Source: Prostheceraeus crozeri (lineage: Eukaryota > Platyhelminthes > Polycladida > Euryleptidae). Taken from it: a stretch of 64,000 bases of DNA. A model generated the notes under the pieces. That model was not told the origin of the DNA. It did not search any database and was given only the letters and a program-made list of their open reading frames with translations. Numbering within the stretch: the stretch's first letter is position 1; the number at the start of each line of letters is the position of its first letter. Shown piece by piece: positions 6,851 through 27,737 of the stretch. The DNA lies in the NCBI GenBank assembly GCA_907163375.1, contig CAJQUW010012946.1, positions 62,001 through 126,000 on the forward strand, written 5' to 3'. The translations under genes were made by a program, and so were the position numbers.

Positions 6851-6874
6851 GTGTCTAATAATATTTCTTTAAAA

Positions 6875-7480: not shown

Positions 7481-7486
7481 GAAGAG

Positions 7487-7500
7487 CTAAAAACTTTAAG
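7487..7500. repeat. Target duplication of the Penelope-like insertion, left copy
   Basis: The 14-mer CTAAAAACTTTAAG is found here and again at 9238-9251, immediately after the right end of the inverted dimer. This defines the insertion as 7501-9237 within intergenic Polinton DNA. Confidence 0.75.
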
Positions 7501-8380: not shown

Positions 8381-8389
8381 TTTATATGC

Positions 8390-8974: not shown

Positions 8975-9237
8975 CTTCTCTGGTGTTTTCTTTAGCTTCT
9001 TTCTCCCTTTTTGTGCTTTTATATGTATTACTCTGTACTCTGTCTATCAGTATTATCCGCATTGACATTATTTTCTACCTTAGAATTCATTTTTACTTCT
9101 TGTCACGTGTTAACCTATAACGATGTTCACTACGCTTCTGTCAGCATTCATTCCGGTGTGTCCCACGTCTAGAACCGGCGAAATATATCGGGTCATCATG
9201 AATACCTTGGTGTTATTCTTTATATACAAAGTGATAT

Positions 9238-9251
9238 CTAAAAACTTTAAG
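9238..9251. repeat. Target duplication of the Penelope-like insertion, right copy
   Basis: Same 14-mer as 7487-7500. After it, Polinton sequence resumes with an aaacaaaactttatt-rich spacer leading to the next gene at 9409. Confidence 0.75.
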
Positions 9252-9408
9252 CGAAAATTTAAGCAAAACTTTAATAAACAAAACTTTATTAAACAAAACT
9301 TAAAACGAAAAGATGTCAGACAACAAAGCAATAAAATAATAATTTGTTCAGTAAAATGTCTTTGTTGTATTCCAATGTTACCACAAAATTCAAATATTAT
9401 ATTTAAAA

Positions 9409-10242: not shown

Positions 10243-10306
10243 CTGAAATATGTTGTTGTTTTTAATTTTTTATAAAAAATGTTTATTTAAAATTTTTAGT
10301 TAAAAA

Positions 10307-11090
10307 ATGTGTTCAGCAGATTTAGACAAAATTAATAATCATTTAGAAAATTTGACAGAGATTTTGGGTTCATCAAAATTTAGTACGACGTTAAAAATTA
10401 TAACAACTACTTCATCACACACTTGTAATTTAGAACCCATTCTACATTTGGAACAAAATAAAAATTATCAAATTGCATTGACTAGTTTCTCCACATTTAA
10501 CACTATTCAAAACGTTATCAAAGATATGAATGATCAATTTAGATATTCTACTGATAAAGGCAAAACATGGAAAATACTAACTTTTCTTCCTGGTTCTTAC
10601 GAAGTTGAATCAATATCAAATGAAATTAAGAGAAATTTAGGTATACCATTTAAAGATAAGAAACAATTACATTTTGCAGTTGAACCGGCAGTTAATAAAT
10701 TTTCTCTTAGACGAAAATCATCAAGTTGATTTTAATCATGATAGATCATTGTCAAAGCTACTAGGATTTAATAAACAAACCTATAGTCAAGGTTATCATT
10801 TAGGTGAGAAGATTCCAAAAATAACTGAAATAAATTCAATTGTTGTACATTGTGACATTATTGAAGGAGGATATATAAATGGTAAATTATCAAATTTAAT
10901 ATTCAGTTTTCCAGCTTTTACTGTACCCATTGGTTATAGACTAAATGTAATTCCACAAACATTAATATATTTTCCTATTACAAGAAAAACTATTAACAAC
11001 ATTGGCATTAGAATCACTGATGAGAAAGGACAAGAAACAAATTTTGGAGGTGAAGAGATTATGATAGATCTTTTGGTTCGAGAGGTATAA
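10307..11090 (+). pseudogene. Penton/minor-capsid-like Polinton protein, frameshifted
   Basis: ATG follows a TTAAAAAATG context. About 260 codons lie in two overlapping frames (10307-10729 and 10674-11090). The join lies in a TTTT run near 10700, where one extra T breaks the frame. The C-terminal half has a beta-rich pattern: LLGFNKQTYSQGYHLGEKIP, INSIVVHCDIIEGGYING, LNVIPQTLIYFPITRKTINN, GIRITDEKGQETNFGG, EIMIDLLVREV. Proteins with this LGF...Y....HL.E...I.....I.VHCD..GG layout occur beside the packaging ATPase in animal Polintons and are candidates for the penton or another minor capsid protein. That role is inferred, not shown. Confidence 0.5.
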
Positions 11091-11147
11091 ACTCCCGTTC
11101 GGGAGGTATAAACTCCCGTTCGAGAGGTATAAAATCCCACGCGAAGC
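11081..11147 (+). repeat. Three tandem 21-bp repeats at a gene end
   Basis: GAGAGGTATAAACTCCCGTTC-type units occur three times across the stop codon of the penton-like gene and just beyond. Each unit can fold through CTCCCGTTCGGGAG. This could act as a 3' processing or termination hairpin. Confidence 0.6.
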
Positions 11148-11206
11148 TAGAGAAGTTTAATTTTCTTCTTCTTCTTTTAAAATAAAAATAAATTTTTTAT
11201 TAAAAA

Positions 11207-11973
11207 ATGAGTGAAGTACTACCATTAAATAAAAAAAACTTAAATTTAATCATCATCCAAATTTATCTAATAAAGTTTTGTCAGTTATTTGTGGAAGATC
11301 AGGATGTGGAAAAACATATCTATTATTTAAAATTTTAACGACTCCAAATTTTTTGGATTATAACAATCTTATAATTTATACAGCAACAGCAGAACAACCC
11401 GTCTATCAATTTTTAAAATATGGATTTGAAAATAATCTTAAAAAAACAGCAATTGCTTCATTATTCAAAGAATATGAAAAATCTGAAGATGAAGAAGAAA
11501 TAAGTTCGTGGTGTGAAGAAGCAGCAAAAAATAATCAGTTAGTTGAATCCAATAAAAATAAGCATATAAAGATACAATTAATAGATGATAGTGGTAATAT
11601 GCAAGATCCTAGTAAACTAGATAAAACAATGAAACATTGTGTATTTTTTGATGATTGTGTCAATGATAGAAATCAGTCAGTTCAGAGAAATTATTTCACA
11701 AGAGGTAGACATAATAACTGTAGTGTATTTTATTTAACACAAAGTATGTATTCATTAGACGGAAGTGTTATTAGAAAGAATTCAAATATATTTGTACTAT
11801 TTGAAATAAATGCAAGAAACTTAAGTGATTTGTTAAGAGATTTATGCGTAAGAAATAAAGATGAATTTAAACAATCGTGTAACAATGCTTGGTCAAAAGA
11901 TTATGGCTTCATTACAATTAATATTGATAAAAAAATTCATGATAGAGTTATAGAAGATTTGTTTACCGAGTGA
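11207..11973 (+). pseudogene. A32-like genome-packaging ATPase (FtsK/HerA superfamily), one frameshift
   Basis: VICGRSGCGKTYLLFK is the Walker A P-loop and KHCVFFDDCVN is Walker B. FTRGRHNNCSVFYLTQSMYSL is the helix/sensor block typical of viral packaging ATPases of the Polinton-PRD1-NCLDV lineage. The likely start is the ATG at 11207 (TTATTAAAAAATGAG). An eight-A run at 11229-11236 is one base out of frame with the domain. The downstream frame is open from about 11236 through HHPNLSNKVLSVICG. The product should drive ATP-dependent DNA loading into preformed capsids. Length of about 255 residues is normal. Confidence 0.85.
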
Positions 11974-12054
11974 TAAAAATATACAAATATAGTGTTACAA
12001 TATTTTTTTTATTTTATATATATATCAGATTTGTCTATCTTAGAAATTAGAAAA

Positions 12055-15000
12055 TTAAAAAGGTGAAGTAGTTATTCCATCAGGTAAAATTTTTCTTTTA
12101 TCATCAAATGGATCTAATGCTAATTTATGTTCTTCTTTTAAATACATTTTATGTTTCTTTGAATGAAGTCTATAATTACATGCTGTTTTTATTTCATTAT
12201 TAAATAATGCATTCTTATAATCTTGAAATGTTATTTGGTTAGCCACTGATGCCTTTGAAATTCCTTTTAATGTTTTATGTGTTTTAATATTATTAGTTGC
12301 ATTATAACAATAACATTTAGATTTTAAAAATATAGCTTCTGTTATGAAATCTTCATTTCCTTCTAATTCATCTTTTACTTTACATAAATCAGAAGGATGA
12401 ATGATATCTTTTATTTTATTAATTTCTTCATCAAGTGAAGAATTATACGGTATTGTTAATTCTAAGAAAACAGAATCGGTATCTGTAAAGTGTAATTTAT
12501 AGTTTTTGCCATAAGCAGGTGCTAAATAATCATATATAAATCTATACATAAATAGTTTAGCTAATTCTAATATAGTGAATCCTATAAAATTAAATTTATC
12601 ATGTTTTACGCTGATTCGACGTAAATGTACAGCACATAGTTCATCACTAAATCTAGTAGTTCTTTTATATGTAGGTTTCCTTGTTAAATTTTGAAACCTA
12701 TCTTTATCATAAACTATTTCAATATTTTGTCTATTACGCACATTTTCTAAAGTCTTACCATAAAATGCATTATTCATTAATTTGAAGAACACGTTTCCAA
12801 AATCATCTTTATTTCTTTTAGCTATTTTACGTTTTTCAATATTGAACTCTATATAATTTTTTAACCACCTAGATTTTCTATACACTAGTTTCCGGTGAAT
12901 TTTTAAAACAATCATTCCATGATCTAAATACCAATCTAGCATTCTTCCTTCAACAACATACTTTCTTTTATTACTTTGTGTTAACTTAAGTTTTTTTGTT
13001 GGTCTGTATTTTTTAGGAATTAAAGATTTTTGATAATCTGAAAAATCTTCTATATTGGGAATTTTGTTTTCGGGACAGAAAGGAAAATATTTTGTTTTAT
13101 CTTTTATTTCATCAGGATATACTAAATCAACTTCATATATATAACCATGATTATAATTTCCATCATATGTTTTTTGATAATCTAGAATATTACACCATGA
13201 CATTTCACCTGTTGGTAATTCTTGTATCATGCAAGAAGAATATAAGCTATTAAAATCATAATATAACAAATAGTTTTCTCTCATGATTTCATCAACTGCT
13301 GCTTGACTATCTTCATTTGATATAAGTCCTTCTATATTTTGATTAAACAATTTTATAAACTGATCACTTTCTTCTGGAGATAAAGGTTTCATTATTCCAT
13401 AATCATCAGGATTTACTTTTTTATTGTAACACTGTACATAACGATTACCTAAAACTGATGAAACTCCACCTCTAATTCCGGATTCAAAAAATAATAATTT
13501 ATCATATGTATTTTCTTTATAATGTTTAAGTTTAACACCAGTATGTTTTAATCCTGCTAACCATGTTAAACCTGGTGTAGAATAACAATAACATGGATCT
13601 ATTCCGTAATATTCTAAACACATATCACGAAAGTTTTCAAAAAGATCAGCAAGGATTAATACATCTATCTGAAGATATTTCATTGTATAATCATACATTG
13701 TTTTACAATTTAACTCTCTCCAATTCTTTTCAGCTTCTGCATAGTCTTCTTTAGATAATTGTGATTGTTTTAATGTTGATTTAAATTTATTTATTGGAGG
13801 AAGTTTTTGTTCTTTCATTATTTTGTTCACAGAATTAAAATCTCCAGTTATATATTCATACGGAAATATTCCTTTTAAAGGTTTTAAATTATATTTATTT
13901 AATATTTTACATTGTTCAGTTTTCAAAGTTTTTCCCATAACATCTAATGAATAAGGAGTAAAAAATCTAAATGCATCTAAAATTCTAATACAACCTAATT
14001 GCATTGAAAAATATTCTTCTTCTGTTTTACATAGTACATTTATTTGTTTTTGTTGTAATTTTTCAGATGAAAATAAATCTTTCATTACTAGATGGAAATC
14101 ATATTTAGAACCATTGTAGAAATATAGAGGAACAAAATTATATTTAAATTTATTAGCATTAAGATTACAAGAATTATGTGCTGCACCTCTATATAATCCA
14201 TTTAGATGATCATGATCTTTTACTTTGTCGGCACAGCCGTCGCTTCGCTTATCAATATATCTACCTCTGCCATTTTTATAATTTTTTGTAAATTCTTTTC
14301 CACAGTAATAACAATATTGTTTCATTAACAAAATTAATTTTTTCTTCATCCGTTAATGGAAGTATTGGTATATTTGTTTCAAGCAATTGTGAAAAATAAT
14401 TTTGTAATTCTTCTACTTTCTTTGTTAACATTTCTGAACTATCTTCACCATAGTATTGATAATATTCTGATTTAAATAATTCAGGATAATTTGAATGAAT
14501 GTACACTCCCCAACATAATGGTTTTTGTTCAACTAAATATTTTTCTCTACTTTGTTCAGCTGCACTTTTTTCATATTTACAATTATCAGAATCGGGCGAA
14601 GCCCTAGAGCCTTCGGTTCGATTTTGTGTCATGTTAACATTATATGCTTCAAAATCACAATAAATAGTAAAGGGTACTTTATTTTTGAAAAACCATTTAT
14701 TGTATTCTAAATAATCATCTTTAGGAAAAGTATTTTCAACTGCTTCGTTTTGTTGACAATTCTCCAAATGTCTATTCATTTCTTCTTTAGTTCTAAAACT
14801 TGTCATACATTGAAGACAAGGAAAATCTGTATTATCTGAAGTTTTTTGTAAATATAGAAACATCTTTACACAATATAAAATGACCCTGATAATATAATAT
14901 ATTCGCTTGTGCTGGTTGCTTTAATTTTTCAAATTTATCTTTATATATTTCATGTGTTTCATCAATTTCTTTTGTAAGATTAAATGTATTTCGATGAAAA

Positions 15001-16506
15001 TTTTGATTTAATATTTGTAGCTGATAAATATATTCTTTATCATATTGTTGTTGACATTTTCTTAGACATTCATTTAATTCTTTATTTTCTTCATTATTTA
15101 ATACTTTATTGTCTTCATTTAATTTTTGTATCGTTTCTATCTTATTTTGATATTTATGGCCATATTCTTGTACTAATATTTTTGTTTGTTGTTGATAATC
15201 TGTTTTACATTTTTGTAAAATTTCATTTAAATTTTGTAATTTTTGTTGATATTCTAAAGATAAAGATAAATAATCGGAATCATAATCATAATTATAATTA
15301 CGTCCTTTATAATTATTATGATTAATCATTATTGGTGATAATGTTTTAACAATTTCAAATTTTTCAGTACATATTATATTTCCTTGGTAAAAAATATTAT
15401 GATGCATGTAATTTCCTCTATCATTATATACTATTTCTGATTGACATAAATTTTTATTATTCAAATAAAATTTTTTTGAATCTGAGTAAAGTGGAGTAAT
15501 TTTACAAATAGAAACATAATTCACATTTAATTCAAAAACATTTACTTCTATTAAATTTTTATTCTTTTTATGAAACTTTGTTAACCTATTGTAATCATAT
15601 GGAAATTCATGTAAGCCATCAGAGACATCAAATTCATTTATGTATTCTTCTTTATTGTAATGACTTAGTCTTTCTTTATGATATTCTGCAGGATGTAAAT
15701 GTGCTATAATACTCCACAGAAAACAATGATCATCTTCATTTTTTATGTTGATTATTTGTGGTGAACTGAAAGGTAAAGGAACATAACTACCACCAGTATT
15801 ATTTTTATATTTATCAATTACTATTTTCTTAGATAGTATTTTAACAAATCGCCAACCAGATTCACGTAACTGGGCTTCAATTATACAATTTTCTAATTTA
15901 AGTATCATTTGTTCAAATATAGGTTGTATATCATTTACATTATGAATTTCTTGTGAATTTGTAAAATGTCCTTGTATTATTTCTTCAGGAATTCCATCAG
16001 GTCCATTTTTTGTATAAAGTACTTCTACATTCATATAACATTTGAAAGATTTTCTAAATATATTATAAAAGTTTGTTAATACATTATAAAAAGTTTCATC
16101 TGTTTCATTATGTTCAACAGATTCATTAAATAAATATTTTATATCTGTTACGGCTTCATCGGTTCGTTCAGCTTCATCTGTTTTTTTAATTTCGTTTAAT
16201 TCTTCTATTTCGTTAAATTCATCAGTATCGCTAAATAAATATCTTCCATCTGGTATGGACTTATCTTCACTATTAAAAACTTTTTTATATTCTGAATGTG
16301 AATAATCATCAAACATTTTTTTAACTTTTATATCAGTAGGTAATGTTTTTAGATAGTTTTTATAATTATTAAAATTTTAATATATTTCCTTCATCAACTC
16401 GATCTACATTTTGTAAATGCAATTTACTATTTAAATGAGATTGATAACTTCTTTTTGTTTGCAACTGTTTTTTACATAAGACACAATAAAACTTGGTATT
16501 TTCCAT
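12055..16506 (-). pseudogene. polB: Protein-primed family B DNA polymerase, three frameshifts
   Basis: The gene runs from an ATG at 16506 to 12055, about 1480 codons. In order: an N-terminal C2H2 finger (FYCVLC...H...H) in a frame ending at 16374; a region with CFLWSIIAHLHPAEYHKER typical of Polinton polymerases; a CLQC...H...C finger; the exonuclease start TIYCDFEAYN; a CYYC...KDHDHLNGLYRGAAHNSCN Cys/His module; YNGSKYDFHLV; palm motif A YYDFNSLYSSCM; motif B KLMNNAFYGKTLENVRNR; and motif C FTDTDSVFLE. Frames change near 16375 (T run), 14845 (six-A run) and 14300. The catalytic Asp residues of motifs A and C are present. It would replicate the element using a terminal protein as primer. Confidence 0.9.
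14593..14620. repeat. GC-rich double-hairpin insert inside the polymerase gene
   Basis: CGGGCGAAGCCCT (stem GGGC/GCCC, loop GAA) is followed by a second stem containing GCCTTCGGTTCG. It is a GC island in very AT-rich DNA. Read in frame in the polymerase it adds a TEGSRASPDS-type peptide. A near copy lies at 17482-17510 inside the next gene, and a single-stem copy at 10227-10239. Confidence 0.6.
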
Positions 16507-16507
16507 T

Positions 16508-16862
16508 TTTTTATTTTTTAAAGAAAAAATTGTGTTTTAATTTTAGATATAAACATTCTAATAACAAGGTCTTGAGAGTTATTTTATATTATAATATATT
16601 TCACGTACTTAAGTTATTTGATTTTCTTTATCACATTAAGTTTTATCATATTAAGTTTTATCATATTAAGTTTTATCATATAATGTTTTATCACATTAAG
16701 TTTTATCATATTAAGTTTTATATGATATAATATAATATATATAATATAATATATATATCATATAATGTTTTATCATATTAAGTTTTATTATATTAAGTTT
16801 TATCATATAATGTTTTATCACATTAAGTTTTATCATATTAAGTTTTATCATATAACGTTTTA
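16508..16862. repeat. AT-rich 15-bp tandem repeat array between two minus-strand genes
   Basis: Units of ATATTAAGTTTTATC or variants are repeated about a dozen times at 16632-16862, with a palindromic TATATA-rich core at 16716-16765. The array lies between the polymerase start and the end of the upstream 465-codon gene, whose last codons run into it. Plus-strand open frames here (FYHIKFYHIKF...) are just the repeat read in frame. It may be a promoter or replication landmark, or a simple expansion. Confidence 0.7.
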
Positions 16863-18235
16863 TCAAAAGATAATTTTAATTTATTTTCACAAAATATTGA
16901 TTCTTCATCATCATAAATTGATTCTTCATCATCATAAATTGATTCTTCATCATCATCATAAATTACACTTTTTGGGATTGGATGCCATTCTCTTATTGGT
17001 ATATCTAATTCTAAATTACATTTTATATCTGATAATAATATAATAGAGAAAAATATTGGTCTTTGATCTCTTTTGGAAAATTTAATAACGCCACCATAAT
17101 CTGAATCACTTTTAGTTTTTATTAAAGATGATAAAATTTTAAATTGATTAGATGTAAATCCTAATTTAAATTTTGTAGACCCGACACATAGTTGTCTAAC
17201 AGTATCTTCAACTATACCATCATTATTATTTTCAATTGTAAGAAGATGAAATTTAGATAAATTTTGATTATATGTAGTATTAATATCATGTACATCAATA
17301 TGAGATATAAATTTTTCTTCACTTAAATTTTTATAATTACTAATATTTTTATAATATTTTTTACCATTTACACCTTTTTCAGATGTTTCAGAATCATCAT
17401 TTATATTATCATCATCTATATTATTATCATCATTATTATTATAAGATTCTTTAAAATTATTGTTATTGGATTCTTTAGGATCGGGCAAAGCCCTAAAACC
17501 TTCGGTTCGTTTATTATGATTATGATTATGGTCATTGTTTATAGTATAAGGTGTAGTCCACATATAAATTTTCTCTTGTTGAGCTAAACCATTTATATAA
17601 GATTTTAACAAATTAATATTTAAGTTTGAATATAATCCTATATAAGTATCATCATCATATATTTGGGGCATTTCTAATGTTTCTTGTTTATAAATTGTAT
17701 CTCTATAATAAACTTGGCATAATAATTCTTCATTATGTTTTTTACTTTCAATATGAATATTATATTGGTTTTGTTCATCAACAAATAATCTTATTTTTTC
17801 CTTTGAAAAAGATTTTAATTTTTTAACTAATTCTCTAATATTGATATAATTAATAATTTTATTTTCTATCCAATCAGTATTAATAATTGGTAATGCTGCT
17901 CTAATAAAACCATAAACATTATTATGACCAATAATAACCATATTTTCTTTATTTAATTCAACATAAGCTACATCATTATATTTACTAACAATATCCATAA
18001 ATTTTATAAATGGATCTCCGGGAAAAATACAATAGTTTGTTTCTATAGAAGGTAAACCTTTAGTCTGTTCTCTAAATATTTCTGCTTGTAATTCAAATAA
18101 AATATTTACATCTATACATGGATTATTATTATTATTATTATCAAAATATTTATTTTCAAATCCCGTTGATCTCGTCGAATAAGAAGAACAGGATGATGCA
18201 GGCGAATATAATTTTTTTAAATTTGGTTTTTCCAT
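16838..18235 (-). CDS. Polinton protein of unknown function, two ordered domains and acidic repeats
   Basis: 465 residues, uninterrupted; the start lies in an AAAAAAATGGA context. N-terminal domain at about 45-225 (IVSKYNDVAYVELNKENMVI, FIRAALPIINTDWIENKI). A low-complexity Asn/Asp linker at about 240-300 includes the GC-hairpin peptide RTEGFRALPDPK. A second domain at about 310-425 (QLCVGSTKFKLGFTSNQFKI, GGVIKFSKRDQRPIFFSIIL). It ends in three copies of DDEESIY and a basic tail. The two-domain beta/alpha pattern next to the polymerase makes a DNA sliding-clamp-like or other replication factor conceivable, but no diagnostic motif confirms it. Confidence 0.6.
   Translation of the reverse strand: MEKPNLKKLYSPASSCSSYSTRSTGFENKYFDNNNNNNPCIDVNILFELQAEIFREQTKGLPSIETNYCIFPGDPFIKFMDIVSKYNDVAYVELNKENMVIIGHNNVYGFIRAALPIINTDWIENKIINYINIRELVKKLKSFSKEKIRLFVDEQNQYNIHIESKKHNEELLCQVYYRDTIYKQETLEMPQIYDDDTYIGLYSNLNINLLKSYINGLAQQEKIYMWTTPYTINNDHNHNHNKRTEGFRALPDPKESNNNNFKESYNNNDDNNIDDDNINDDSETSEKGVNGKKYYKNISNYKNLSEEKFISHIDVHDINTTYNQNLSKFHLLTIENNNDGIVEDTVRQLCVGSTKFKLGFTSNQFKILSSLIKTKSDSDYGGVIKFSKRDQRPIFFSIILLSDIKCNLELDIPIREWHPIPKSVIYDDDEESIYDDEESIYDDEESIFCENKLKLSFDKTLYDKT
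17482..17510. repeat. GC-rich double-hairpin insert, second gene
   Basis: CGGGCAAAGCCCT and then CCTTCGGTTCG: the same two-hairpin unit as at 14593-14620, read in frame as RTEGFRALPDP in the 465-residue protein. It lies in the low-complexity linker, where an insertion would be tolerated. Confidence 0.6.
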
Positions 18236-18310
18236 TTTTTTATTTTTATTAGAAAAAATTTTATTTTTTTTCTCATCATATAAAAAAATTACTTTTTTAT
18301 TGTTTTAAAA
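18236..18310. promoter_or_regulatory. Divergent intergenic promoter region
   Basis: Only 75 bp separate the starts of two divergent genes (465-residue gene on minus, fibre-like gene on plus). The interval is nearly pure A/T, with T-rich tracts and a (T)TTTAAAAATG context at both starts. It probably holds both promoters. The same start-proximal TTTTTTATTAAAAATG-like context precedes most genes of the element. Confidence 0.45.
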
Positions 18311-19197
18311 ATGATGTTTCCAAATGTTGGTGGAGGTGCATATATCCCGAATAATCGTGAATTAGAAATAGAGATTGAAAATTATATCATGAAAACTGGA
18401 GACGTTTTATCTGGTCCATTGCATCTTTCTATTCTTCCGCAACAAAATACAGAGTTAACAAATAAACAATATGTTGATACACAAATCAATGACTTAAGAG
18501 AAAAATATATAAACGATGTTTTGGTTCCACTGATGAATGAATTGAAGTTGCTAAAACTTAATGACAAATCATTAAACGAAAGATTATTAAAACTTGATAA
18601 AAATGATAGAGAGCTAGAAGCAGATATAGCAAAACTTTTTAAAAAAATTTCTGAACAATCAAAAAATTTAATATTACGTTCTTTAAATTTAAAATCTGCA
18701 GTCATTAAAAATAAACATCAGATAAAATTATTGAAAGAACAATTAGAAGATGAAATAGAAAAACTACCTGAAAGAATTAAAAAAATTTAAAGCAGTTACA
18801 AACTACATTCCAAAAAAGTGTTGATGAATTAAGTTCTAAAATTACTCAACAAATGAAAAAGATGAATAGAATAATAAATGAAGTAAACTCGCTTAATCAA
18901 AAAGTTGATAAAATGAAAACTCTTAAAATCAATTTAGAAAATGAATTAAAGAAAAATTTACAAGAAAACTCTAAAGAAAATAAATAACAGTTAGATTCTG
19001 TTAAAAGACAATTAGATGTTCTTAAAATTAAGTTAAATGCTCTTAAAACGGCGTTGAAGATGAATCAGGAGAAAATGCAAGTTAATAGAAAAGAAATTAA
19101 AGTACATCACACGCTACTTGACGCAATAGATAAAGTGCAAAAGAAACTTGATAAAGTTATCACGAAGTTGTTGGACATTCACAAACGTAAATCCTAA
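18311..19197 (+). pseudogene. Fibre-like trimeric coiled-coil protein, frameshifted
   Basis: The N-terminus begins MMFPNVGGGAYIPNN. The block KTGDVLSGPLHLSILPQQNT, then ELTNKQYVDTQI, matches the 'M.G.L.l...P....a.nKqYVD' repeat of viral and phage fibre proteins. The remaining 230 codons are almost unbroken heptads of Leu/Ile with Lys/Glu. A frame change in the A run near 18785 ends the first frame at 18790, and TAA at 18985-18987 stops the second. Coiled coil continues to 19197. A receptor-binding or surface fibre role is inferred; no knob domain is visible. Confidence 0.6.
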
Positions 19198-19237
19198 CGT
19201 AAATATTTTTCCCAAAAGTCAAATTTATTCCTAAAAA

Positions 19238-19745
19238 ATGCCTATAATTTATAAACACAATCTTAAACATTTTGCTTCAAATGAAAGAATTGCTCATGAA
19301 CCACGTATGAATCCTGTTTATCATTATGATAATGGAGAAACAGTTCACACGGAAGGAGCTGGCATCTTTTCTGGTATTGGAAGTATCGTTAACTTAATTA
19401 AAAATAATAAAGATTTGATTACATCTGCTGCAAAAGGAGCAGCTGCTATAGGTAGTACAGCTAGTGCAATATCAAATGCAAATGCTGTTACGTCTCAAAA
19501 CGAATTAAAACAACTAGAAGCTATTCGTAAACTTAGGAATGATTCTGAAGAACTAAAAAATTTAAAAAAATCTTTCAGAGGAAACAAAAAATAAAATTGC
19601 TAACATAGCTGTTGGGGAAACCCTCAGGAGCGGAGCTCCGTATTATAGTAAACATAAGAAGAAATCAGGCGTAGCCATAAAACGTTCAATTGAAGAAATA
19701 AGAGGTAATGGCGTGAGCAGCGCAGCTGGTCTAGCAAAATTCTAA
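19238..19745 (+). pseudogene. Minor virion protein with membrane-active segment, frameshifted near its end
   Basis: Intact for 118 codons, then TAA at 19592-19594. The next frame carries on (NIAVGETLRSGAPYYSKHKK, then ..IRGNGVSSAAGLAKF) to 19745, with the slip in an A run near 19587. Features are an EGAGIFSGIGSIVNLIKN helix and a small-residue helix SAAKGAAAIGSTASAIS. This resembles the membrane-lytic minor capsid proteins of adenovirus-like viruses in style, with a basic tail. It lies directly upstream of the capsid gene. Function is inferred from composition and position. Confidence 0.5.
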
Positions 19746-19936
19746 AATTATATTTTAGTAAAATTTTTTTAGTAAAATTTTTTAGCAAAATTTTTTTTAG
19801 TAAAATTATTTTAGTAAAATTTTTTAGTAAAATTTTTTTAGTCAAATTTTTTAGTCAAATTTTTTTAGTCAAATTTTTTTAGTCAAATTTTTTCTATGTG
19901 TGAGAAAAACAAATAGTCAAATTATTTTTTATAAAA
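19746..19936. repeat. AT-rich tandem repeats upstream of the capsid gene
   Basis: Degenerate repeats of TTTTAGTAAAATTTTT and TTTAGTCAAATTTTTT fill the spacer up to the ATG at 19937. They could contain the capsid gene promoter. No other structure is seen. Confidence 0.6.
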
Positions 19937-21271
19937 ATGTCTTCGCTAATTGAAAATAAATTTGAATTAGATAAACCACCAGGTGTTAGTTATAATCAAA
20001 AAAAGAATGACTATATCAGAATTGCTGTGAATCCCGGATCTTCTAGTAGAGTAAATACTGGAGGAGATTTAATTTTTGGAGCTGATAATCAACAAAGTTA
20101 TATATATTTACCTGATTCGTTTTTACACTGTGAATATTCTTTATATAGTGATGCTAATTTTACAACACCATTACCAGAAACCGATAATATTGCACTAGAG
20201 AATAATTTTTTTCCAAAATTATTTACACAAATGCGTTTAGATGTTGCAACTCAAAATATAGAAACAATAAGTGATTCTCCAGGTGTAATTGATACAATGC
20301 TTAGATTTGTAACAATTGGTGAAAATAATAAAAAGTATGAAATCGAAGGTTGGTTTCCTGATAATAATAATGGTATAATTGTTGATGATTTAACTCACGC
20401 TGGAACAGATGCAGCAGGAATTGCGAAAGATGTAGAAAATATTGCAAAACATTTAAATAAAACAAACAATAGTGCATATAAAGAAAGACGTGAATTTAAC
20501 AAGAAAAGTAAACAGACAGTTAATTGGTCATTGTCTCCATTATTCGGATATTTAGATTATGATGAAATATCATATCAATTAAAATTTAAATTAATAATTC
20601 ATCGCACAGCAAATAATGAATTAATCTTTTTTGGTAAGACTGGAAAAAAAGCATATCTAAAAATTGATAGACTTGAATGGTGGATTAAGCATATTACTCC
20701 TAGTTTAGAGATTGAAACAGCTATTGCAAAAAGATTAAATACTAACAAACCAATTCCACTAAATTTTCTAAAGCGTACTGCAAGTTCAGTAACTTTTTCC
20801 GAACAAAGATTTAACTGGCATTTTACTAGAACTTCAAATACTCCAAGATATTTATTACTAACATTTCAAAGAAATAATTCTTCAAGTTTTGATAAGAACA
20901 ACAATCTTTTTCATATTAATACAATTCGAAGTTTACAAGTTTCATTAAATCAAACCCGATATCCAATTGATCCATTAAGATTCGATGATACCAATAATCA
21001 ATTTATGGAAGGATATGATTTTTATCGAAATCTTTGTATAGAATTTGGAGTTGAACCACAATTAACTCCTGGAGATTGGAGACATTTATATCCTGTTTTC
21101 TGTTTCGATTTAAGTGCACAATCTGAAGATATTATCAAGACTGGTTGTGATGTAACAATTAATATTGAAAAGAAAGATTCCACAACTTCATTGATGGTTT
21201 ATGGTTTATTGCTAGAAGATGTAAAATATTCTATTGAAATTCTTAATGGAAAGATGGCTAGGATTAATTAA
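19937..21271 (+). CDS. Major capsid protein candidate, double jelly-roll type
   Basis: 444 residues, uninterrupted, the best-preserved large gene of the element; ATG in TTTTTATAAAAATGTC. It is beta-rich throughout. Characteristic blocks include VNPGSSSRVNTGGDLIFGAD near the N-terminus, LDRLEWW-like KIDRLEWWIKHITPSLEIET in the middle, INTIRSLQVSLNQTRYPIDP, and LTPGDWRHLYPVFCFDLSAQ followed by SED and a DVTINIEKKDST strand. The '(L)YPVF.FD.S.QSE' block before the final strands is typical of capsid proteins of animal Polintons/adintoviruses, though sequence identity in this family is low. Its size, position between the two minor virion proteins and intact state fit the shell protein. Confidence 0.7.
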   Translation: MSSLIENKFELDKPPGVSYNQKKNDYIRIAVNPGSSSRVNTGGDLIFGADNQQSYIYLPDSFLHCEYSLYSDANFTTPLPETDNIALENNFFPKLFTQMRLDVATQNIETISDSPGVIDTMLRFVTIGENNKKYEIEGWFPDNNNGIIVDDLTHAGTDAAGIAKDVENIAKHLNKTNNSAYKERREFNKKSKQTVNWSLSPLFGYLDYDEISYQLKFKLIIHRTANNELIFFGKTGKKAYLKIDRLEWWIKHITPSLEIETAIAKRLNTNKPIPLNFLKRTASSVTFSEQRFNWHFTRTSNTPRYLLLTFQRNNSSSFDKNNNLFHINTIRSLQVSLNQTRYPIDPLRFDDTNNQFMEGYDFYRNLCIEFGVEPQLTPGDWRHLYPVFCFDLSAQSEDIIKTGCDVTINIEKKDSTTSLMVYGLLLEDVKYSIEILNGKMARIN

Positions 21272-21417
21272 TTTTTTCTTGATAACTTAAAATTTTTTTA
21301 GTAATTAGTAATAAAATTTTTTCATAACTAGAATAGATTAAAAAAATTCTTAGATTAAAATTTATTCATAACTAGAATAGATTAAAATTTTGGTAACTTA
21401 AAATTTTTTTATTAAAA
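21272..21417. repeat. AT-rich direct repeats between capsid and minor virion genes
   Basis: The unit 'cataactagaatagattaaaa' occurs twice (about 21323 and 21368), with AAAATTTTTTTA runs. Presumed promoter or spacer. Confidence 0.5.
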
Positions 21418-21899
21418 ATGTCGCAAGCGAAAAGTAATAATAAAACTGTTGAATTAAAATTACGTAATATTGTTGACAAAAATACCCCTAAAACTATTAC
21501 GATTAATAAAAAAAGTATTACATAAGTAAACCAATGATAGAGAATATTCAATTACAAGAGGAAAAGAATGGTGGAATTCTCCCATTAATTCCACTAATAA
21601 TAGGTGGCATAGCAGCAGCAGGAAGTGTTGCAGGTGGGACAGCTGGTATTGTCCAAGCAGTAAATAAAAATAAATCAGAGAAGGCAGCATTAGAAGAACA
21701 AAATCGACATAATAGAGAGTTAGAGAAAGTTGCTAGGGGTGAAGGAATAGTAGATCATTTTATTAGTAAATGAAAATTAGTTGATGAAGGAAAACGAGTT
21801 CTTAAAAATATTCTCCACAATGTTGATGATATAATTGAAATTAAAGAAACAAAAGATGGTTCTGGAATATATCTAAGTCCTAGTATGATAAGGTTATAA
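21418..21899 (+). pseudogene. Second hydrophobic minor virion protein, frameshift plus TGA
   Basis: ATG in TTTTTTTATTAAAAATGTC. The first 31 codons (TVELKLRNIVDKNTPKTITI) slip out of frame in a seven-A run near 21508. The next frame holds QLQEEKNGGILPLIPLIIGG and IAAAGSVAGGTAGIVQAVN, a long Gly/Ala-rich hydrophobic segment of the kind seen in small membrane-active proteins of adintovirus-like elements. TGA at 21771-21773 interrupts it. The frame continues with VDEGKRVLKNILHNVDDI and GSGIYLSPS to TAA at 21897-21899. About 160 codons in all. Role is inferred. Confidence 0.5.
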
Positions 21900-21967
21900 C
21901 CTCAGGACCTTTGGTTCTATTCGGTAAAACTTTTATTTTATCTTTTAAAATTTTTTTCTCTTTAAAA

Positions 21968-22480
21968 ATAGATTCCGCAAATTCTACAAATTCTGAAAAT
22001 TTAATTAAATTAAAAATTGCTAATTTAGATTTATTAAATTATCTATTAAACAAAAATGAAAACTCAAATTGTAAAATTTATGAAGGTAACGACATACAAA
22101 AAACATTAGAAAACTTTCATGGATTTATTTGGAGTAAATATTCGAAAGAAAAACATCTTCCTGGTCATTCATATACCGGTCCAGGAACTCGATTAGATAT
22201 AAGACTAGATGAGAATAATAATCCAAAACCAGGTGAAGAACCAATAAATAGAGTAGATGCCGCAGCTTACAGGCATGATTTAGCTTATCGAAATCATGAT
22301 CTAAGTTTTCGTCATGCAGCTGATAAGAAGATGATTCAAGAATTAGATAGTATTCAAAATCCTACATTTAGAGAAAAAATTGAAAGAATGTTTGTTAAGA
22401 AAGCTTTACAAGCTAAAATATTATTCGGTCAGGGTTTAAATGAAACGACAGCAAAGCTGTCTGAGAACAACGCTCGAACA
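21968..22480 (+). pseudogene. Phospholipase A2-like domain (parvovirus VP1 type), start codon lost
   Basis: LPGHSYTGPGTRLDIRLDEN is the calcium-loop-like block. PINRVDAAAYRHDLAYRNHD is the catalytic helix with the His-Asp pair, followed by AADKKMIQEL. This is the compact viral phospholipase A2 fold used by parvoviruses, and reported in some adintoviruses, to breach endosomal membranes. The frame has no ATG. The expected start context TTTAAAAATG reads TTTAAAAATA at 21961-21970, so the start is probably mutated. The frame runs without a stop directly into integrase sequence. Confidence 0.75.
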
Positions 22481-23269
22481 TACGCGTCTGAAATCCATAA
22501 AGAATATAGAAGGCCTAAATATTTATTGAAAGTAAAAGTATTTAATAAAGATGATATTTGGAGTGCTGATCTAATAAATATGGCGAATGAAGGAGGGTTT
22601 AAGTACGCATTGACCGTTATAGATTTATATACACGATACGCTTGGGTAAAGCCTTTAAAAAACAAAAGTGGTCTATCAGTTAAATATGCGTTTGAAGAAA
22701 TCTTTAAAGAAAGTAATAGAAAGCCAAGGAAATTGTTTGTTTATACAGGGTCGGAATTTTATAACCGAAACGTTCAGCCACTATTTGAAACTGTTTATTC
22801 AACTGAAAATGCAGGGAAGGCCGTAGTGATAGAAAGATTCAATCGGACGTTAAAAAATTAATTATTCAAGAAATTTACTGAGCAAAGAAATCAGAAATGG
22901 TTGAAGATATTACAAGGAATTGTAGAGCAGTACAATAACAAAGTTCATTCTGGTATTGAAGAAACCCCAAAGAATGCTTCTGACGACCCTGATTTAATCC
23001 GAAAGAAAATATTCGAAAATAATTATTCAAATGAGAGTAATCCGAATTTGCAGAAACTTAAGCCGAAATTTAAAATTGGAGATAGAGTTAGAATATTTAA
23101 GTATAAGAATAAATTTGAAAAAGGCTTTGTTGGCTATTGGACGAAAGAGATATTTGAAGTTTGTAAAATAAATCAAACTTATCCCATTACTTACGAAATC
23201 AAAGATTTAAATAATGAAGATATCAGAGGCCGATTTTATGAAAATGAATTACAACGAAGCGATTCTTAA
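22481..23269 (+). pseudogene. Retrovirus-like integrase (rve, DDE), truncated and mutated
   Basis: From SEIHKEYRRPKYLL onward this is a Polinton integrase: DIWSADLIN carries Asp1, and YALTVIDLYTRYAWVKPLKN follows. The second catalytic position reads VYTGSEFYN, where the family has Asp in place of Tyr. VVIERFNRTLK carries the Glu. TAA at 22859-22861 breaks the frame, which then continues through VEQYNNKVHSGIEETPKNAS and the C-terminal SH3/chromo-like GDRVRIFKYK...WTKEIFEV region to 23269. The usual N-terminal zinc-binding domain is missing, replaced by the phospholipase domain in the same frame. The enzyme would integrate the element; this copy cannot be active. Confidence 0.85.
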
Positions 23270-23296
23270 TTATCATTATCATTATTATTATTGGAA

Positions 23297-23770
23297 CTAA
23301 CGTTTCGGGAATGAAATTCCCTTGTTCAATTCTAACATAATATCAAGAAATGGCACTTCTTTTTGTAATTTAAATAAAACATAAAGACATAATTGACCGC
23401 AATAAGTAGTTCCTGGTTTTTGAATTTGAAATGTATTATAAGTTCCATTGCCAAGTAATTTTTTAACTTCATTTGTAGGTGGAAGTCCATAAGAGTCAAA
23501 ATAATAATTATCTCCATTTTTATTAGACATACATGCAGACCAATGTACACCTTTTTGATCTGACGTATGAAGATTTGTTATGAAATTTATAGTTGGTACT
23601 TTGTTCCGGGAACTGAAGGTTCCTGTTGGCTTATTTTTTAGGAATTGTATTTCGTCTCTCATCAATATGTGAAAATTCTTTATTCCCAATTGATTTGCGA
23701 TTTTCTTTAAATCGAAATTTTTAGTTGTTTGCGTTCCATAGAATTTTAAAAACTCATTTATGTTGCTCAT
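23297..23770 (-). CDS. Adenain-like maturation cysteine protease
   Basis: 157 residues, uninterrupted. HTSDQKGVHWSACM carries the catalytic His, GDNYYFDSYG the acidic residue, and KPGTTYCGQLCLYVLFKL the Gln/Cys end of the active site. This is the layout of the adenovirus protease/Ulp1-like (C5-type) fold used by Polintons to process virion proteins. It faces the integrase gene, with 27 bp between their stops, and has a truncated relative at 24016-24198. All three catalytic regions are present, so it may be functional. Confidence 0.8.
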   Translation of the reverse strand: MSNINEFLKFYGTQTTKNFDLKKIANQLGIKNFHILMRDEIQFLKNKPTGTFSSRNKVPTINFITNLHTSDQKGVHWSACMSNKNGDNYYFDSYGLPPTNEVKKLLGNGTYNTFQIQKPGTTYCGQLCLYVLFKLQKEVPFLDIMLELNKGISFPKR

Positions 23771-23806
23771 TTTATAATTAAAAAAATTTCTTATAGAGAC
23801 CCCTAG

Positions 23807-23985
23807 AAGTCATAAGGGGGGTATTGATTTAAAACTGTTCCACAATGATGACTTTCCTTACTACTTAGTCAGAAGGGGGTATTGATTTAAAACTGTTTCA
23901 TAATGATGACTTTCCTTACTACTTAGTCAGAAGGGGGTATTGATTTAAAACTGCTCCACAGTGATGACTTTCCATACTACTTATT
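23807..23985. repeat. Three tandem copies of a 59-bp repeat
   Basis: AGAAGGGGGTATTGATTTAA, then aactgttccacaatgatgac, then tttccttactacttagtc: three nearly identical units lie between the full protease gene and its truncated relative. G-run-containing units stand out in the AT-rich element. Confidence 0.85.
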
Positions 23986-24015
23986 CGATTTTGAAATGAT
24001 TTAATTTAATCTAAA

Positions 24016-24198
24016 TTAAAAAGGTACATGGTAAGGAATCAGTTTATTAGCAGAGTTAGTGCTTAGCACATCTTTTATCAATAGTATTTGATCCCTCATC
24101 AATAGGTGAAAATTCTTTATTCCCAATTGATTAGCGATCGCATTTAAATCGAAATTCGTAGTTGTTTGTTTGCCGTATAATTCTAAAAACTTAGTCAT
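24016..24198 (-). pseudogene. Truncated duplicate of the protease N-terminus
   Basis: MTKFLELYGKQTTTNFDLNA and IANQLGIKNFHLLMRDQ align residue for residue with the first 40 residues of the protease at 23770. After LLMRDQ the sequence diverges and the frame closes without the catalytic His, Asp or Cys. The start is taken at 24198 by alignment, although the frame is open up to 24288. A partial tandem duplication bounded by the 59-bp repeats is the simplest account. Confidence 0.7.
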
Positions 24199-24288
24199 GT
24201 TATTAACCTGAGGACATCTATCGCCTATATTATTACTCAGTATAACTGTCGGATTTTCATCATTCATTTTAAAGGAAATAAATTCCAA

Positions 24289-24662
24289 TAACTGTAATAA
24301 TGTCTACTTCTTGTACAGAAAAATAAAAACAACGGCAGTGTATTTTGCATCAAATGTAATAATACAACAATCAATCTTATCACACAATTGTACAATAGCA
24401 GAGTCACATGGTAGTAGACTGGAGAACAAAAGAAAATTTAATTGCATTTCAAAATAATCCAAAATGCGTTACTACTTATAAAGAAGTCTTCATAAATATG
24501 TATGCATCAAATATGTATGGACATTGCACATATCTTAAAAAGTGAAACAACACAGTTAATGTTCATTCATCTTTGGAACCAAACCTCATTTCTTCTATAG
24601 CTGTCGGTTGATTCAATTTTTCTATATAAATTTTGATTTCTTTAAAATGTTTTCTAACAAAA
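24289..24662 (-). other. Spacer holding a 36-codon open frame
   Basis: A minus-strand frame from ATG 24673 to TGA 24563 encodes MPISFVRKHFKEIKIYIEKL and then NQPTAIEEMRFGSKDE. It could be a separate small peptide or a spliced 3' end of the neighbouring gene: GTAAGT lies at about 24745-24750 on the minus strand and a CCCATTAG acceptor just before this frame, but the phases do not match. The rest of the interval has no coding signal. Confidence 0.3.
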
Positions 24663-25169
24663 CTAATGGGCATTGATGAATTTAAAAATAATACGTGTGG
24701 TAGAATTAGATCTGATAAGTTTCATCAAGAAATAACAATAACTTACGTTATAGGAAATTCTAAATAGTTCCAAGTTTGCCACAAATCTGTTCTTTTTATT
24801 GTCACTCAATTCCAGAATTCTTTTAAATTCATAACCTTGATAAGCAGCACTTCTCAGCAACGAACCATGGTGTACTTTATCACTTGCAATCAGTTTTGAA
24901 ATCATAGTAGCACTATCTTCGATGGTAATGAAATGTTCTTTTGTAACATTGAACTGAGGAATTGTAGTAGTGGTCAGATACTGTTCTATTTTTACTGTAA
25001 TATCCTCCACATGTTTTTGAGAGTCCAATTTGTTCTTCTTTCTCGATTGAATTTCTAACTTCCACTCTTCTAAGTATTTATTCGCAGTTTCCTTGTGCTC
25101 TTCTTTAATTAAGTTCAGTAAAATCGGCATGTAAAACGAAAAAGCTTCCACGGCAGTACGTTTTGGCAT
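24663..25169 (-). CDS. Polinton right-end protein, possibly HMG-box-like
   Basis: The start is taken at the ATG at 25169; an upstream in-frame start at 25196 is possible. The product is about 168 residues. The N-terminus MPKRTAVEAFSFYMPILLNL followed by IKEEHKETANKYLEEWKLEI resembles the first and last helices of an HMG box (basic residues, then AF.F(Y)M, later E....Y...W), but the middle helix is short. The rest is helical, with a possible domain around HGSLLRSAAYQGYEFKRIL. Base composition is less AT-extreme than the core genes, which suggests later acquisition. Function unknown; the HMG idea is tentative. Confidence 0.45.
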   Translation of the reverse strand: MPKRTAVEAFSFYMPILLNLIKEEHKETANKYLEEWKLEIQSRKKNKLDSQKHVEDITVKIEQYLTTTTIPQFNVTKEHFITIEDSATMISKLIASDKVHHGSLLRSAAYQGYEFKRILELSDNKKNRFVANLELFRISYNVSYCYFLMKLIRSNSTTRIIFKFINAH

Positions 25170-25464
25170 TTTGCAATGAAGAAAGAAAACAGTCACTAGT
25201 TATGATTAATGGAATTGTAAAATGAAGTCTTACTTCCTACATGCTGCAATATATTCCACGTCGTTTTAATCTTTAATAGGGTAACAGCTGCTTGTTCTGT
25301 AATTCAATGGTTCAGGAATGCCAGAAGCAACTGCATTTATGTCATGTATGCGGGAGCAGCTGTTCCCTACAATTGGGAGGTTCATCAGAGTGCAAAGCAG
25401 TAACAATAACAGGCATTGTAAGAGATTGTGTTACATTCTTAAAGAAATATTATTAGTCACATGT

Positions 25465-25904
25465 TATATTTTAAAAACCTGAAAGATGGATAAAATTCAT
25501 GATTTTCGTCATGATTTTGGGAGTAAAATGTCATAATCACAAATTTTGAGATTCTTAACTTTTATGATTTTTCCGGTGTCCTGGAACGGTCATGATTTTG
25601 GGAGTAAAAATTGTAATTCTCAAATTTTGAGATTTTGAAAAATTTGAAAATTGGGTATTTTTAAAAACGCCTAAATTTATGAATTTAGGTCTTCATAACC
25701 TGAAAAAATGACCAAAATTCATGAATTTAGAACATTTAAAAAGTACCATTTTTTGAAAAATCGGTATCTTTAAAAACGTCTAAATTCATGAATTTAGGAC
25801 TTAAAAACCTGAAAAAGGGTCTAAATTCATGAATTTATGTCGTTTTTAAAGATACTATTTTTTTGAATTTTATGGTGTCCTGGAACGGTCTTTTGCCGAT
25901 TACT
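25465..25904 (-). repeat. Polinton right terminal inverted repeat
   Basis: Inverted match of the left terminus with the same palindromes and two 17-mers (25575-25591 and 25874-25890). It is slightly longer than the left repeat because an internal block (catgattttgggagtaaaa...) is present twice, at about 25508 and 25593. Small differences between the two repeats show that they have diverged since integration. Confidence 0.9.
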
Positions 25905-25910
25905 AATATC
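25905..25910. repeat. Polinton target-site duplication, right copy (AATATC)
   Basis: Identical to 6445-6450 and placed immediately after ATTACT at the right terminus. Both copies lie in the codon series for ...NPEIF... of the Tigger transposase. Confidence 0.93.
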
Positions 25911-27086
25911 TCTGGATTCAACGGACATATTACGCAGCAGCGGAATCCATTCTCGGCTTTCTGAACCGTCGCGACTTGTGAATACGCAGATCCGAATAAT
26001 GAAGCAATCTCATACTGAGTTATTCGACGACCAGGGTTGGCTTTCATGAATTCTGAGCAACTTTTGGCAAAAGTCTGTTTGATTGGTCCATAAAAGGTAC
26101 GATCCAAAGGTTGAAGTTTGTTAGATGTATGGGGTGGAATGGTTAACATTACGACGCAATTTTCATTGCACATCTCCCATGACTTGAGAGATGTATGAGA
26201 TTTGTGATTGTTCAAGATAAGGAGAACTTTGTTATCTCTCCTCGCGCCAACACAGTCAATGAAATGCTCCAACCATTTCACGAAAAGCTCTTCGTTTATC
26301 AATCCTGAATCTGAGGTGCCCCAAATTGAGCCAGTAGGAGCGCCATGCAAGAGAGCTATCACCATTTTCTTTCTAGGATAGATGAACATGGGTGGCACAT
26401 ACTGTCCATGTGGTCCAAAACAACACATAACGGTGATAGTTTGACCTCATTCAGCGCTCGTGATTCGACCGATTTGTTTCTGTCCTTTCGTTGCAATGCT
26501 TCACAGGAATGTCAGGCACAGTGGAAAGGCCTGATTCGTCGGCGTTAAATACTCTATGAAAAGGAATGTCATGTTCTTCAATACACGATTTCAGATTGTC
26601 GAAGAATCTTTGAACTGCTTTCCGATTAAACCCGACTGCACGTGCCATGCTTGTAGCTTCTGGAGAACGTAGTGACAGGTCATTGTTTCGCCTCATGAAT
26701 CCTTGAAACCAATCTTTGCCCGCTAATCGTGTTTTCTTATTGAATGGATGGTTAACATTAGCCTTCTCAGCAAAATCGTAGGCCAGGCGTCGCAGATCTA
26801 TAGGAGTTAGTCCAAAGAAACGGGCACACATTTCACGAGCATAGTTCGATAGTTCTTTTTCTTGAGTGACTGAAAATACAGAGCAACGTCCAACATGACA
26901 GTTTTGTCCTCGACGTAGATGTCTATTCTTGTTCGATTTTAAATCATATAGAGTTGATCGCGGAATTCCAGTACGAACAGAAACACGTCGAATAGAAACA
27001 CCAATGGATAATAAATGTCTTGCACTTTCTAAGTCTTGAGAAGACCATGACTTTCTTTTTCCAGTTCTAATATAATTCCTCATCAT
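25905..27086 (-). pseudogene. Tigger/pogo transposase, N-terminal and catalytic part
   Basis: The protein starts at the tandem ATGs at 27081-27086. It has a helix-turn-helix (SIRRVSVRTGIPRSTLYDLK), a CENP-B-like second domain (FGLTPIDLRRLAYDFAEK...WFQGFMRRN), and then the DDE domain. FNADESG carries Asp1. The second catalytic position reads ILNNHKSH, where the family has ILDNH, so the second Asp is now Asn. KLQPLDRTFYGPIK carries the third acidic residue. A frameshift near 26450 and a TGA at about 26430 (in ..SAE*GQTITV.., where Arg is expected) break the frame. The gene then runs into the Polinton at 25904 and resumes at 6450. Confidence 0.85.
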
Positions 27087-27737
27087 CACGATTATCGTGT
27101 GAGAACGAACAATCAAGCCACCTTCGATGATGCGTCGAACTGTAGACACTTGCTGCAGTATGCACTCAAATAAAGTCAACGCACGTGAATATTGGTAGAT
27201 GAGAGCTCTTCTATTGTGTCCTTGTTAGGTCTGTATGTAAGATGAGTCAAACAGACACATGGGAATGCTTTTGTTCACACAACGAAGCTCGGATCGTTGT
27301 AAACTTTCATCTGAAGATCAGATTGAGTTGAAGTGGGGCAATAGCGGACATGCGCCCGCAATTCCGCGCAAGCGTCACAAAATGCAAAATGATCTTCTCT
27401 CAGTAATAGACAGCAGCTGCTATCAAAAACTCTACACTGATAGAAATGGCATATAAGACGATATTGAAATGACATGTCGGATTCTATATTCATTTGTTAT
27501 TCTGGCGTGAATCCATCGGAGTGTGATGACGAAAAATCGATTTTGTAGGGGTCAAAAGGATATTTTGGCCAATTTTGATATGATAGAAAGAACCAATCCC
27601 CTAGAAAAATTAACTGAAATTGTTGAACTTCATCTACTTACATGGGAAACATATGTTTGGTTCCAAATCTAGATAGAAGATAGAGAACTCGAGGTGTCCG
27701 CAATTACCCCATTTCGCTATTGCCCCGCTCTCCCCTA

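What the first reader, a model, noticed from the sequence alone, without database searches (positions are those of the whole stretch)
21968..23269. Phospholipase A2 domain read directly into an integrase
The parvovirus-type PLA2 (HDLAY) and the integrase core share one open frame with no stop between them, and the integrase lacks its usual N-terminal zinc domain. It could be a real fusion protein, linking membrane breach and integration, or a deletion joining two neighbouring genes. The lost start (ATA for ATG), the Asp-to-Tyr change at the second catalytic position and the TAA at 22859 argue that this copy is dead, but a fused ancestor is possible.
Basis: partly seen in the sequence, partly recalled or inferred. 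Interest (0 to 1): 0.75.

Follow-up and report, generated by a model that had tools for sequence, protein, structure and literature searches.

The report
Phospholipase-integrase fusion gene of Polintons
A virus-like mobile DNA element carries a gene in which a membrane-cutting enzyme and a DNA-integrating enzyme form one protein; this copy is dead, but many related copies keep both active sites, so the fusion looks like a real protein type.

Summary
A PLA2 domain (PF08398) and an rve integrase core (PF00665) share one open frame, 21884-22858. The deletion reading fails: of the 120 listed relatives, 118 span both domains. A search with the integrase part alone still gave 91 of 120 listed with PLA2 in front. 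Catalytic residues of both enzymes are nearly invariant. The integrase lacks a zinc domain by nature: in the sister group 52 of 113 PLA2-less hits begin 26-41 residues before the first catalytic Asp. This copy is broken: no in-frame ATG before PLA2, Tyr at the second catalytic position, TAA at 22859. It lies in a Polinton with both ends (6451-25904, 19,454 bp, inverted repeats, 6-bp duplication AATATC) inside a pogo-like transposase gene, behind capsid and pX-like genes on the same strand. Three related proteins have a probable adenovirus-type protease before the integrase instead. My mechanism, inferred: a virion polyprotein that brings the integrase in with the entry enzyme and is cut at a Gly-rich junction. 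Ten paper searches, with passages of ten papers, showed no such fusion; the founding adintovirus paper is not held.

The parts
6451..25904 (.). Polinton/Maverick element with both ends, 19,454 bp (contains what looks like a later insertion near its left end)
   Evidence: TIRs, 6-bp TSD and empty-site reading frame
6445..6450 (.). left target-site duplication AATATC
25905..25910 (.). right target-site duplication AATATC
6451..6880 (+). left terminal inverted repeat
   Evidence: BLASTN 86% over 483 columns incl. indels, 6443-6880 against 25912-25431; alignment
25431..25904 (-). right terminal inverted repeat
11233..11973 (+). packaging ATPase (frame)
   Evidence: PF04665 E 1.2e-4, 22.1 bits vs cut-off 22.8
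12055..16376 (-). DNA polymerase B frame (12055-14352) and two overlapping frames upstream of it (14276-14920, 14832-16376), probably its N-terminal part broken by frame changes (inferred)
   Evidence: PF03175 E 2.6e-17 on 12058-14352; frames; upstream frames have no Pfam family above cut-off
19904..21271 (+). [quoted passage not shown]
   Evidence: PF21738 E 3.3e-18
21534..21776 (+). 79-aa protein like adenovirus pX, with a KNGG-ILP motif
   Evidence: PF05829 Adeno_PX E 0.0023, 18.2 bits, under cut-off 25
21884..22861 (+). open frame (stop to stop) of the PLA2-integrase fusion, ending at TAA 22859-22861; no in-frame ATG before PLA2
22148..22390 (+). parvovirus-type PLA2 domain (HDLAY at 22274-22288)
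   Evidence: PF08398
22418..22438 (+). C-end of PLA2 with the conserved G-x-G junction (ILFGQGL), candidate protease site
   Evidence: low-confidence break at this place in the model of relative P0014
22553..22780 (+). rve integrase catalytic core, Tyr at the second catalytic position (22742-22744)
   Evidence: PF00665
22862..23266 (+). C-terminal part of the integrase, beyond the in-frame stop
   Evidence: no Pfam family of its own
23297..23809 (-). probable adenain/Ulp1-type maturation protease (GVHW, FDSYG, TYCGQ motifs), tail to tail with the fusion gene
   Evidence: motifs read; no Pfam match; family assignment recalled
25911..27224 (-). N-terminal and catalytic part of the pogo-like transposase gene interrupted by the element, over two adjacent frames
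   Evidence: PF03184 E 6.4e-19 on 25913-26446, empty site
5838..6450 (-). C-terminal part of the same transposase gene, with a PHD-finger-like end
   Evidence: PF00628 E 3.2e-4, under cut-off, empty site

Best explanation
SHOWN (about 0.9): the gene is a decayed member of a widespread family of Polinton/adintovirus-like integrases that carry a parvovirus-type PLA2 domain where other integrases have an N-terminal zinc domain; relatives keep both active sites. INFERRED (about 0.45): the fusion is a virion polyprotein. It is made with the late capsid genes; PLA2, which in parvoviruses is the virion part that opens the endosomal membrane (established knowledge), brings the integrase into the particle; the element's adenovirus-type protease then cuts at the Gly-rich junction, so the incoming particle holds both the enzyme that breaches the membrane and the one that inserts the genome. 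The 0.65 below is for the whole statement, weighing both tiers; the rivals are not all exclusive of it.
Against: P4 at the PLA2-INT junction is Lys in 83 of 145, not Met/Ile/Leu as in the adenovirus rule (recalled); strict sites occur in 26 of 149 junctions against 13.5 expected from shuffles, and the GG in front of PLA2 (82 of 109 rows with that end) is a strict site in only 8 of 109. 16 of 145 junctions fit neither pattern. Of 21 GG rows 7 have a second LGxG/LGQ shortly after, so GG there is an insert, not a switch. Well-supported branches force only 5 of the GG changes, and shuffled labels give 7.7. The strict sites of the protease-INT proteins arise in 14%, 10% and 3% of shuffles, and the three are related. 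No virion, cleavage or activity was observed. Many sister integrases are separate genes, so fusion is not required for all Polintons.
Confidence: 0.65

Rival explanations
1. The fusion only couples expression: PLA2 is the virion protein, the integrase is a passenger translated with it and freed in the producing cell, never packaged.
For: Linkers of very different length (18-88 residues in 117 rows, 0 in one); separate INT genes in the sister group; the junction motif would serve release as well.
Against: An enzyme needed early after entry gains little from late expression (inference), and a second virion-type enzyme, the probable protease, is joined to INT in three relatives.
Confidence: 0.3
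2. PLA2 is an integral part of the integrase: it replaces the zinc domain as a DNA- or membrane-binding module of the assembled intasome and stays attached.
For: It precedes the part that aligns with foamy-virus integrase from residue 89 on (3oy9); one row, 6rny_K, is aligned from model residue 9 and chain residue 69, so some overlap with that domain's place is possible. K and G at its C-end are nearly invariant and invariant in 66 rows; the two domains' distances correlate.
Against: Separate sister integrases do without it; linker length varies widely; the modelled junction is of low confidence.
Confidence: 0.2
3. A deletion joined two neighbouring genes in this copy or its recent ancestors.
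For: This copy is decayed.
Against: 118 of 120 listed relatives, down to 40% identity, span both domains with conserved active sites, and separate integrases begin at the same point.
Confidence: 0.02
4. PLA2 and INT are ancestrally two adjacent genes that fuse easily and repeatedly by loss of one stop; the fusions have no common function.
For: Fused and separate forms are mixed in the 33-row group of the integrase tree; 13 of 113 INT-only proteins start with Met-Gly, as if at the G-x-G point.
Against: In the 66-row group 52 representatives are fused and the other 14 may be fragments.
Confidence: 0.3

Closest known systems
Polinton/Maverick elements with separate PLA2 (CAP) and INT genes, e.g. 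Sf Maverick 1 and 2 (PMC5803895, passages)
   Same: Parvovirus-type PLA2, rve integrase, adenovirus-type protease, PolB and ATPase in one element
   Different: There PLA2 and INT are separate ORFs and INT has a chromodomain; here one frame, and no chromodomain was found in the window
Lipases of PLVs, virophages and Polintons (PMC4642659, one passage)
   Same: PLA2 like that of parvovirus capsids, proposed there to act in entry
   Different: No fusion to the integrase is described in the passage
Parvovirus VP1 unique region
   Same: PLA2 motif and order; best, weak, PDB match of the window's PLA2 is a capsid protein VP1 (E 0.33)
   Different: Fused to a capsid jelly roll there (recalled), to an integrase here
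Foamy-virus (PFV) integrase
   Different: No zinc N-terminal domain here; PLA2 in front
Trichoplax MELD virus integrase (P0284)
   Same: Homologous integrase of an animal-associated relative (51% identity to P0007's integrase)
   Different: DUF5679-like N-end (24.5 bits, cut-off 27) and chromodomain, no PLA2
Terminal protein-OTU protease-PolB of polintons (PMC11071308, passages)
   Same: Another polinton enzyme fused to accessory domains
   Different: Different enzyme and domains

Membership tests
Polinton/Maverick | protein-primed PolB | tested here: met
   PF03175 E 2.6e-17; frames broken; protein priming itself not tested
Polinton/Maverick | rve integrase | tested here: met
   PF00665 E 9.3e-7, 3 bits under cut-off; PF00665 in 34 of 34 scanned relatives at E <= 0.01
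Polinton/Maverick | double jelly-roll MCP | tested here: met
   PF21738 E 3.3e-18
Polinton/Maverick | packaging ATPase | tested here: met
   PF04665 E 1.2e-4, 0.7 bits under cut-off
Polinton/Maverick | adenovirus-type protease | tested here: inconclusive
   motifs only, no Pfam match
Polinton/Maverick | terminal inverted repeats and 6-bp target duplication | tested here: met
   (6 bp as the Polinton hallmark is recalled)
Adintovirus | integrase with C-terminal chromodomain (as stated in PMC11071296, passage) | tested here: not met
   no Pfam match in 22862-23266; 3 of 34 scanned relatives have it
Adintovirus | PolB with OTU-like N-terminal domain and recognisable Hexon | not tested
   -
Parvovirus-type PLA2 (PF08398) | catalytic His-Asp and Ca-loop motif | tested here: met
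   YTGPG and HDLAY present; conserved in relatives; roles of the motifs recalled
Parvovirus-type PLA2 (PF08398) | lipase activity | not testable with these tools
   needs an assay
Retroviral-type DDE integrase | D, D, E catalytic triad | tested here: not met
   this copy has D, Y, E; the second position is D in 115 of 121 rows
Retroviral-type DDE integrase | HHCC N-terminal domain | tested here: not met
   0 of 149 fused proteins have an HHCC-like motif between PLA2 and D1. INT-only: 0 of 113, but D1 was located in 106 and only 54 have 26 or more residues before it

The most novel reading that the evidence does not exclude
The integrase N-terminus of animal Polintons is a docking point for virion enzymes: PLA2 in one great group, the maturation protease in another lineage, a zinc ribbon in others. 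Each fusion loads the integrase into the particle and is cut there by the viral protease, so these 'transposons' enter cells as virions with a ready integrase, as retroviruses do, but by a separately evolved route.
Probability: 0.4. Interest if true: 0.82.

Novelty: new variant of a known kind. Interest (0 to 1): 0.62.

Why it matters
Whether Polintons spread as infectious particles is an open question. A conserved protein that joins an entry-type enzyme to the integrase makes a testable prediction: integrase is delivered by the particle. It also sets the compact integrase without a zinc domain in context and gives a domain signature by which such lineages can be recognised in genomes and metagenomes.

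Tried and rejected
Deletion between two genes: rejected. Missing integrase N-terminus: rejected. Relatives with DNA: four scans of viral contigs and one of genome contigs found none, so gene neighbourhoods outside the window, and whether PLA2 lies just upstream of the separate INT genes, could not be read. Search of the window's own genome: seven requests unanswered, so copy number and host are unknown. Protease part of P0283: no PDB match by sequence up to E 1, only a short motif shared with the window's protease (E 0.22), weak model there; the fold search listed integrases and barely tested that part. Its protease identity rests on weak Pfam matches (PF00770 E 4.2e-4 in P0283, 0.0088 in P0275, 0.059 in P0274, all under cut-off) and motifs. 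Likewise the PLA2 part of the P0014 model was barely tested by the fold searches. One origin or several of the fusion: unresolved, because INT-only labels include fragments (P0283 was dropped there as a near copy). The first repeat search started too far right and missed the TIR. A first count of the junction motif was out of register and was replaced.

Limits of the counts: admits only proteins 0.55-1.75 times the query length and ranks two-domain matches first, so 118 of 120 overstates; one search is the fairer test. Only the best 120 of 726, 7234 and 1345 hits were listed. Of the 149 fused proteins 38 begin inside PLA2. In one search the K and the P2 Gly are part of the search pattern, so their constancy there is by construction. 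Start codons of the relatives are those of a gene caller. Paper PMC8502044 is not held.

Full report
WHAT WAS CHECKED. The frame 21884-22861 on the + strand is open for 325 codons and holds PF08398 (PLA2-like, E 5.7e-9) followed by PF00665 (rve core, E 9.3e-7, 29.5 bits against a cut-off of 32.6). It stops at TAA 22859-22861; the rest of the integrase continues in frame to 23266. There is no in-frame Met before the PLA2 domain, and the second catalytic position is Tyr (22742-22744).

THE ELEMENT. A repeat search with a wider left flank gave inverted repeats 6443-6880 / 25912-25431 (86% over 483 columns). The element's ends read AGTAAT.../...ATTACT, bordered by the same hexamer AATATC at 6445-6450 and 25905-25910. 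Joining the flanks with one hexamer gives one frame without stops across the site, of a pogo-like transposase, whose right part has PF03184 at E 6.4e-19. The Polinton is thus 6451-25904, 19,454 bp, and was once inserted by a working integrase (its own or another's; inference). It carries PolB (PF03175 E 2.6e-17), an ATPase (PF04665 E 1.2e-4, just under cut-off), a double jelly-roll capsid protein (PF21738 E 3.3e-18), a 79-residue pX-like protein (PF05829 E 0.0023, under cut-off) and a probable protease known here from motifs only. The fusion gene follows the capsid and pX-like genes on the same strand.

THE FUSION IS CONSERVED. A protein search with the frame gave 726 hits, 120 listed. Aligned with the window, 118 of the 120 cover both the PLA2 His column and the first integrase Asp column. 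Over the 121 rows: PLA2 His 118, Asp 118, Tyr 119, distal Asp 120; integrase first Asp 121, second Asp 115 (window Tyr), Glu 107 with 12 gaps. That ranking favours two-domain proteins, so I searched with the integrase part of P0007 alone (1345 hits, 120 listed). My PLA2 profile finds PLA2 in 91 of the 120; 29 lack it. Of the 29, three have a probable protease before the integrase (P0274, P0275, P0283), one is the Trichoplax MELD virus integrase with a DUF5679-like N-end (P0284), and 25 begin inside the integrase, in the linker or in what looks like the last helix of PLA2; they may be fragments or separate genes. One fused, partial gene model is from a named animal genome, Hydra vulgaris LOC136074287 (P0156).

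PHYLOGENY. A quick integrase tree of 99 representatives (of 266 segments) has two deep groups: one of 33 with 18 INT-only, 11 PLA2, 2 DUF5679 and 2 protease forms, and one of 66 with 52 PLA2 fusions and 14 INT-only. The nearest listed relative of the window, P0001, is in the second. The number of origins is not resolved: the PLA2 label needs 24 changes, many of them caused by INT-only rows that may be fragments. PLA2 and INT distances correlate across 66 fused proteins (r 0.561; 0 of 999 permutations), as expected if the two domains travelled together.

MECHANISM. Three things suggest a virion polyprotein. First, the window's gene order. Second, the junction: in 145 of 149 fused proteins a K....G was found at the PLA2 end. 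The next two positions hold Gly at one or the other in 129 of 145 (table 16, 103, 21, 5; Fisher 4e-11 without correction for relatedness), which looks like the adenovirus protease rule xGx|G or xGG|x (recalled). On a tree of 66 fused proteins the G-G and G-x-G states switch 7 times by parsimony (5 forced by well-supported branches; shuffles 7.7), and rows with neither need 3 changes. In the model the chain is of low confidence at 123-128, exactly there. Third, three relatives have a protease-like domain with adenovirus/Ulp1-type motifs before the integrase (PF00770 E 4.2e-4, 0.0088, 0.059, all under cut-off), and in each the only strict sites lie at the junction (shuffle frequencies 0.14, 0.10, 0.03). 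Against: P4 is Lys in 83 of 145; strict sites are only 26 of 149 against 13.5 expected; the GG before PLA2 is strict in 8 of 109; 7 of 21 GG rows are better read as inserts with a G-x-G after them; and no cleavage has been seen. In the window's pX-like protein the G-G motif also has Lys at P4, which would suit a shifted preference but is one example. I put the polyprotein reading at about 0.45.

LITERATURE. PLA2 in Polintons is known (PMC4642659, one passage; PMC3671162, a figure legend, the figure itself not held), as is a separate PLA2-bearing CAP gene beside INT in insect Mavericks (PMC5803895, passages). Ten paper searches were made: PLA2 or phospholipase with Polinton, Maverick, adintovirus, integrase or parvovirus, and PF08398 with integrase, Polinton integrase with zinc and chromodomain, and adintovirus with integrase and virion. 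Passages of those three papers and of PMC11071296, PMC12220804, PMC11071308, PMC12721341, PMC8363768, PMC4061559 and PMC7805220 showed no PLA2-integrase fusion; the other listed papers were seen as listings only. The founding adintovirus paper (PMC8502044) is not held, so an earlier mention there cannot be excluded.

VERDICT. A real and conserved domain architecture of Polinton integrases, for which I found no report in what I could search, seen here in a dead copy; new variant of a known kind.

Noticed in passing
P0274, P0275, P0283 (relatives): Probable adenain/Ulp1-like protease before the same integrase, with a protease-type site at the junction: perhaps a second, separate fusion of a virion enzyme to INT.
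   Followed up: partly
P0217, P0284 (relatives): DUF5679 (in P0284 under cut-off) directly before the integrase without PLA2; DUF5679 matches in 5 of 34 scanned PLA2 fusions.
   Followed up: partly
7520-9240: Two perfect inverted repeats (377 and 273 nt arms, 100%) around a frame that looks like a Penelope-type GIY-YIG end (recalled motif; no Pfam support); inside the Polinton near its left end: a recent insertion or an assembly fold-back.
   Followed up: no
5838-6450 and 25911-27224: Pogo-like transposase gene with a PHD-finger-like C-end, split by the Polinton.
   Followed up: partly
23626-23764 and 24063-24201: 139-nt direct repeat (81%), a second partial copy of the start of the probable protease gene; three 58-nt tandem units at 23817-23990 lie between.
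   Followed up: no
16584-16908 and 19739-19903: AT-rich tandem arrays of about 15-nt and 13-15-nt units between frames inside the element.
   Followed up: no
P0121 (relative): Tandem duplication of the integrase within one 562-aa frame.
   Followed up: no
P0187 (relative): An integrase of this family filed under a Methylococcales MAG, probably contamination of the bin (inference).
   Followed up: no
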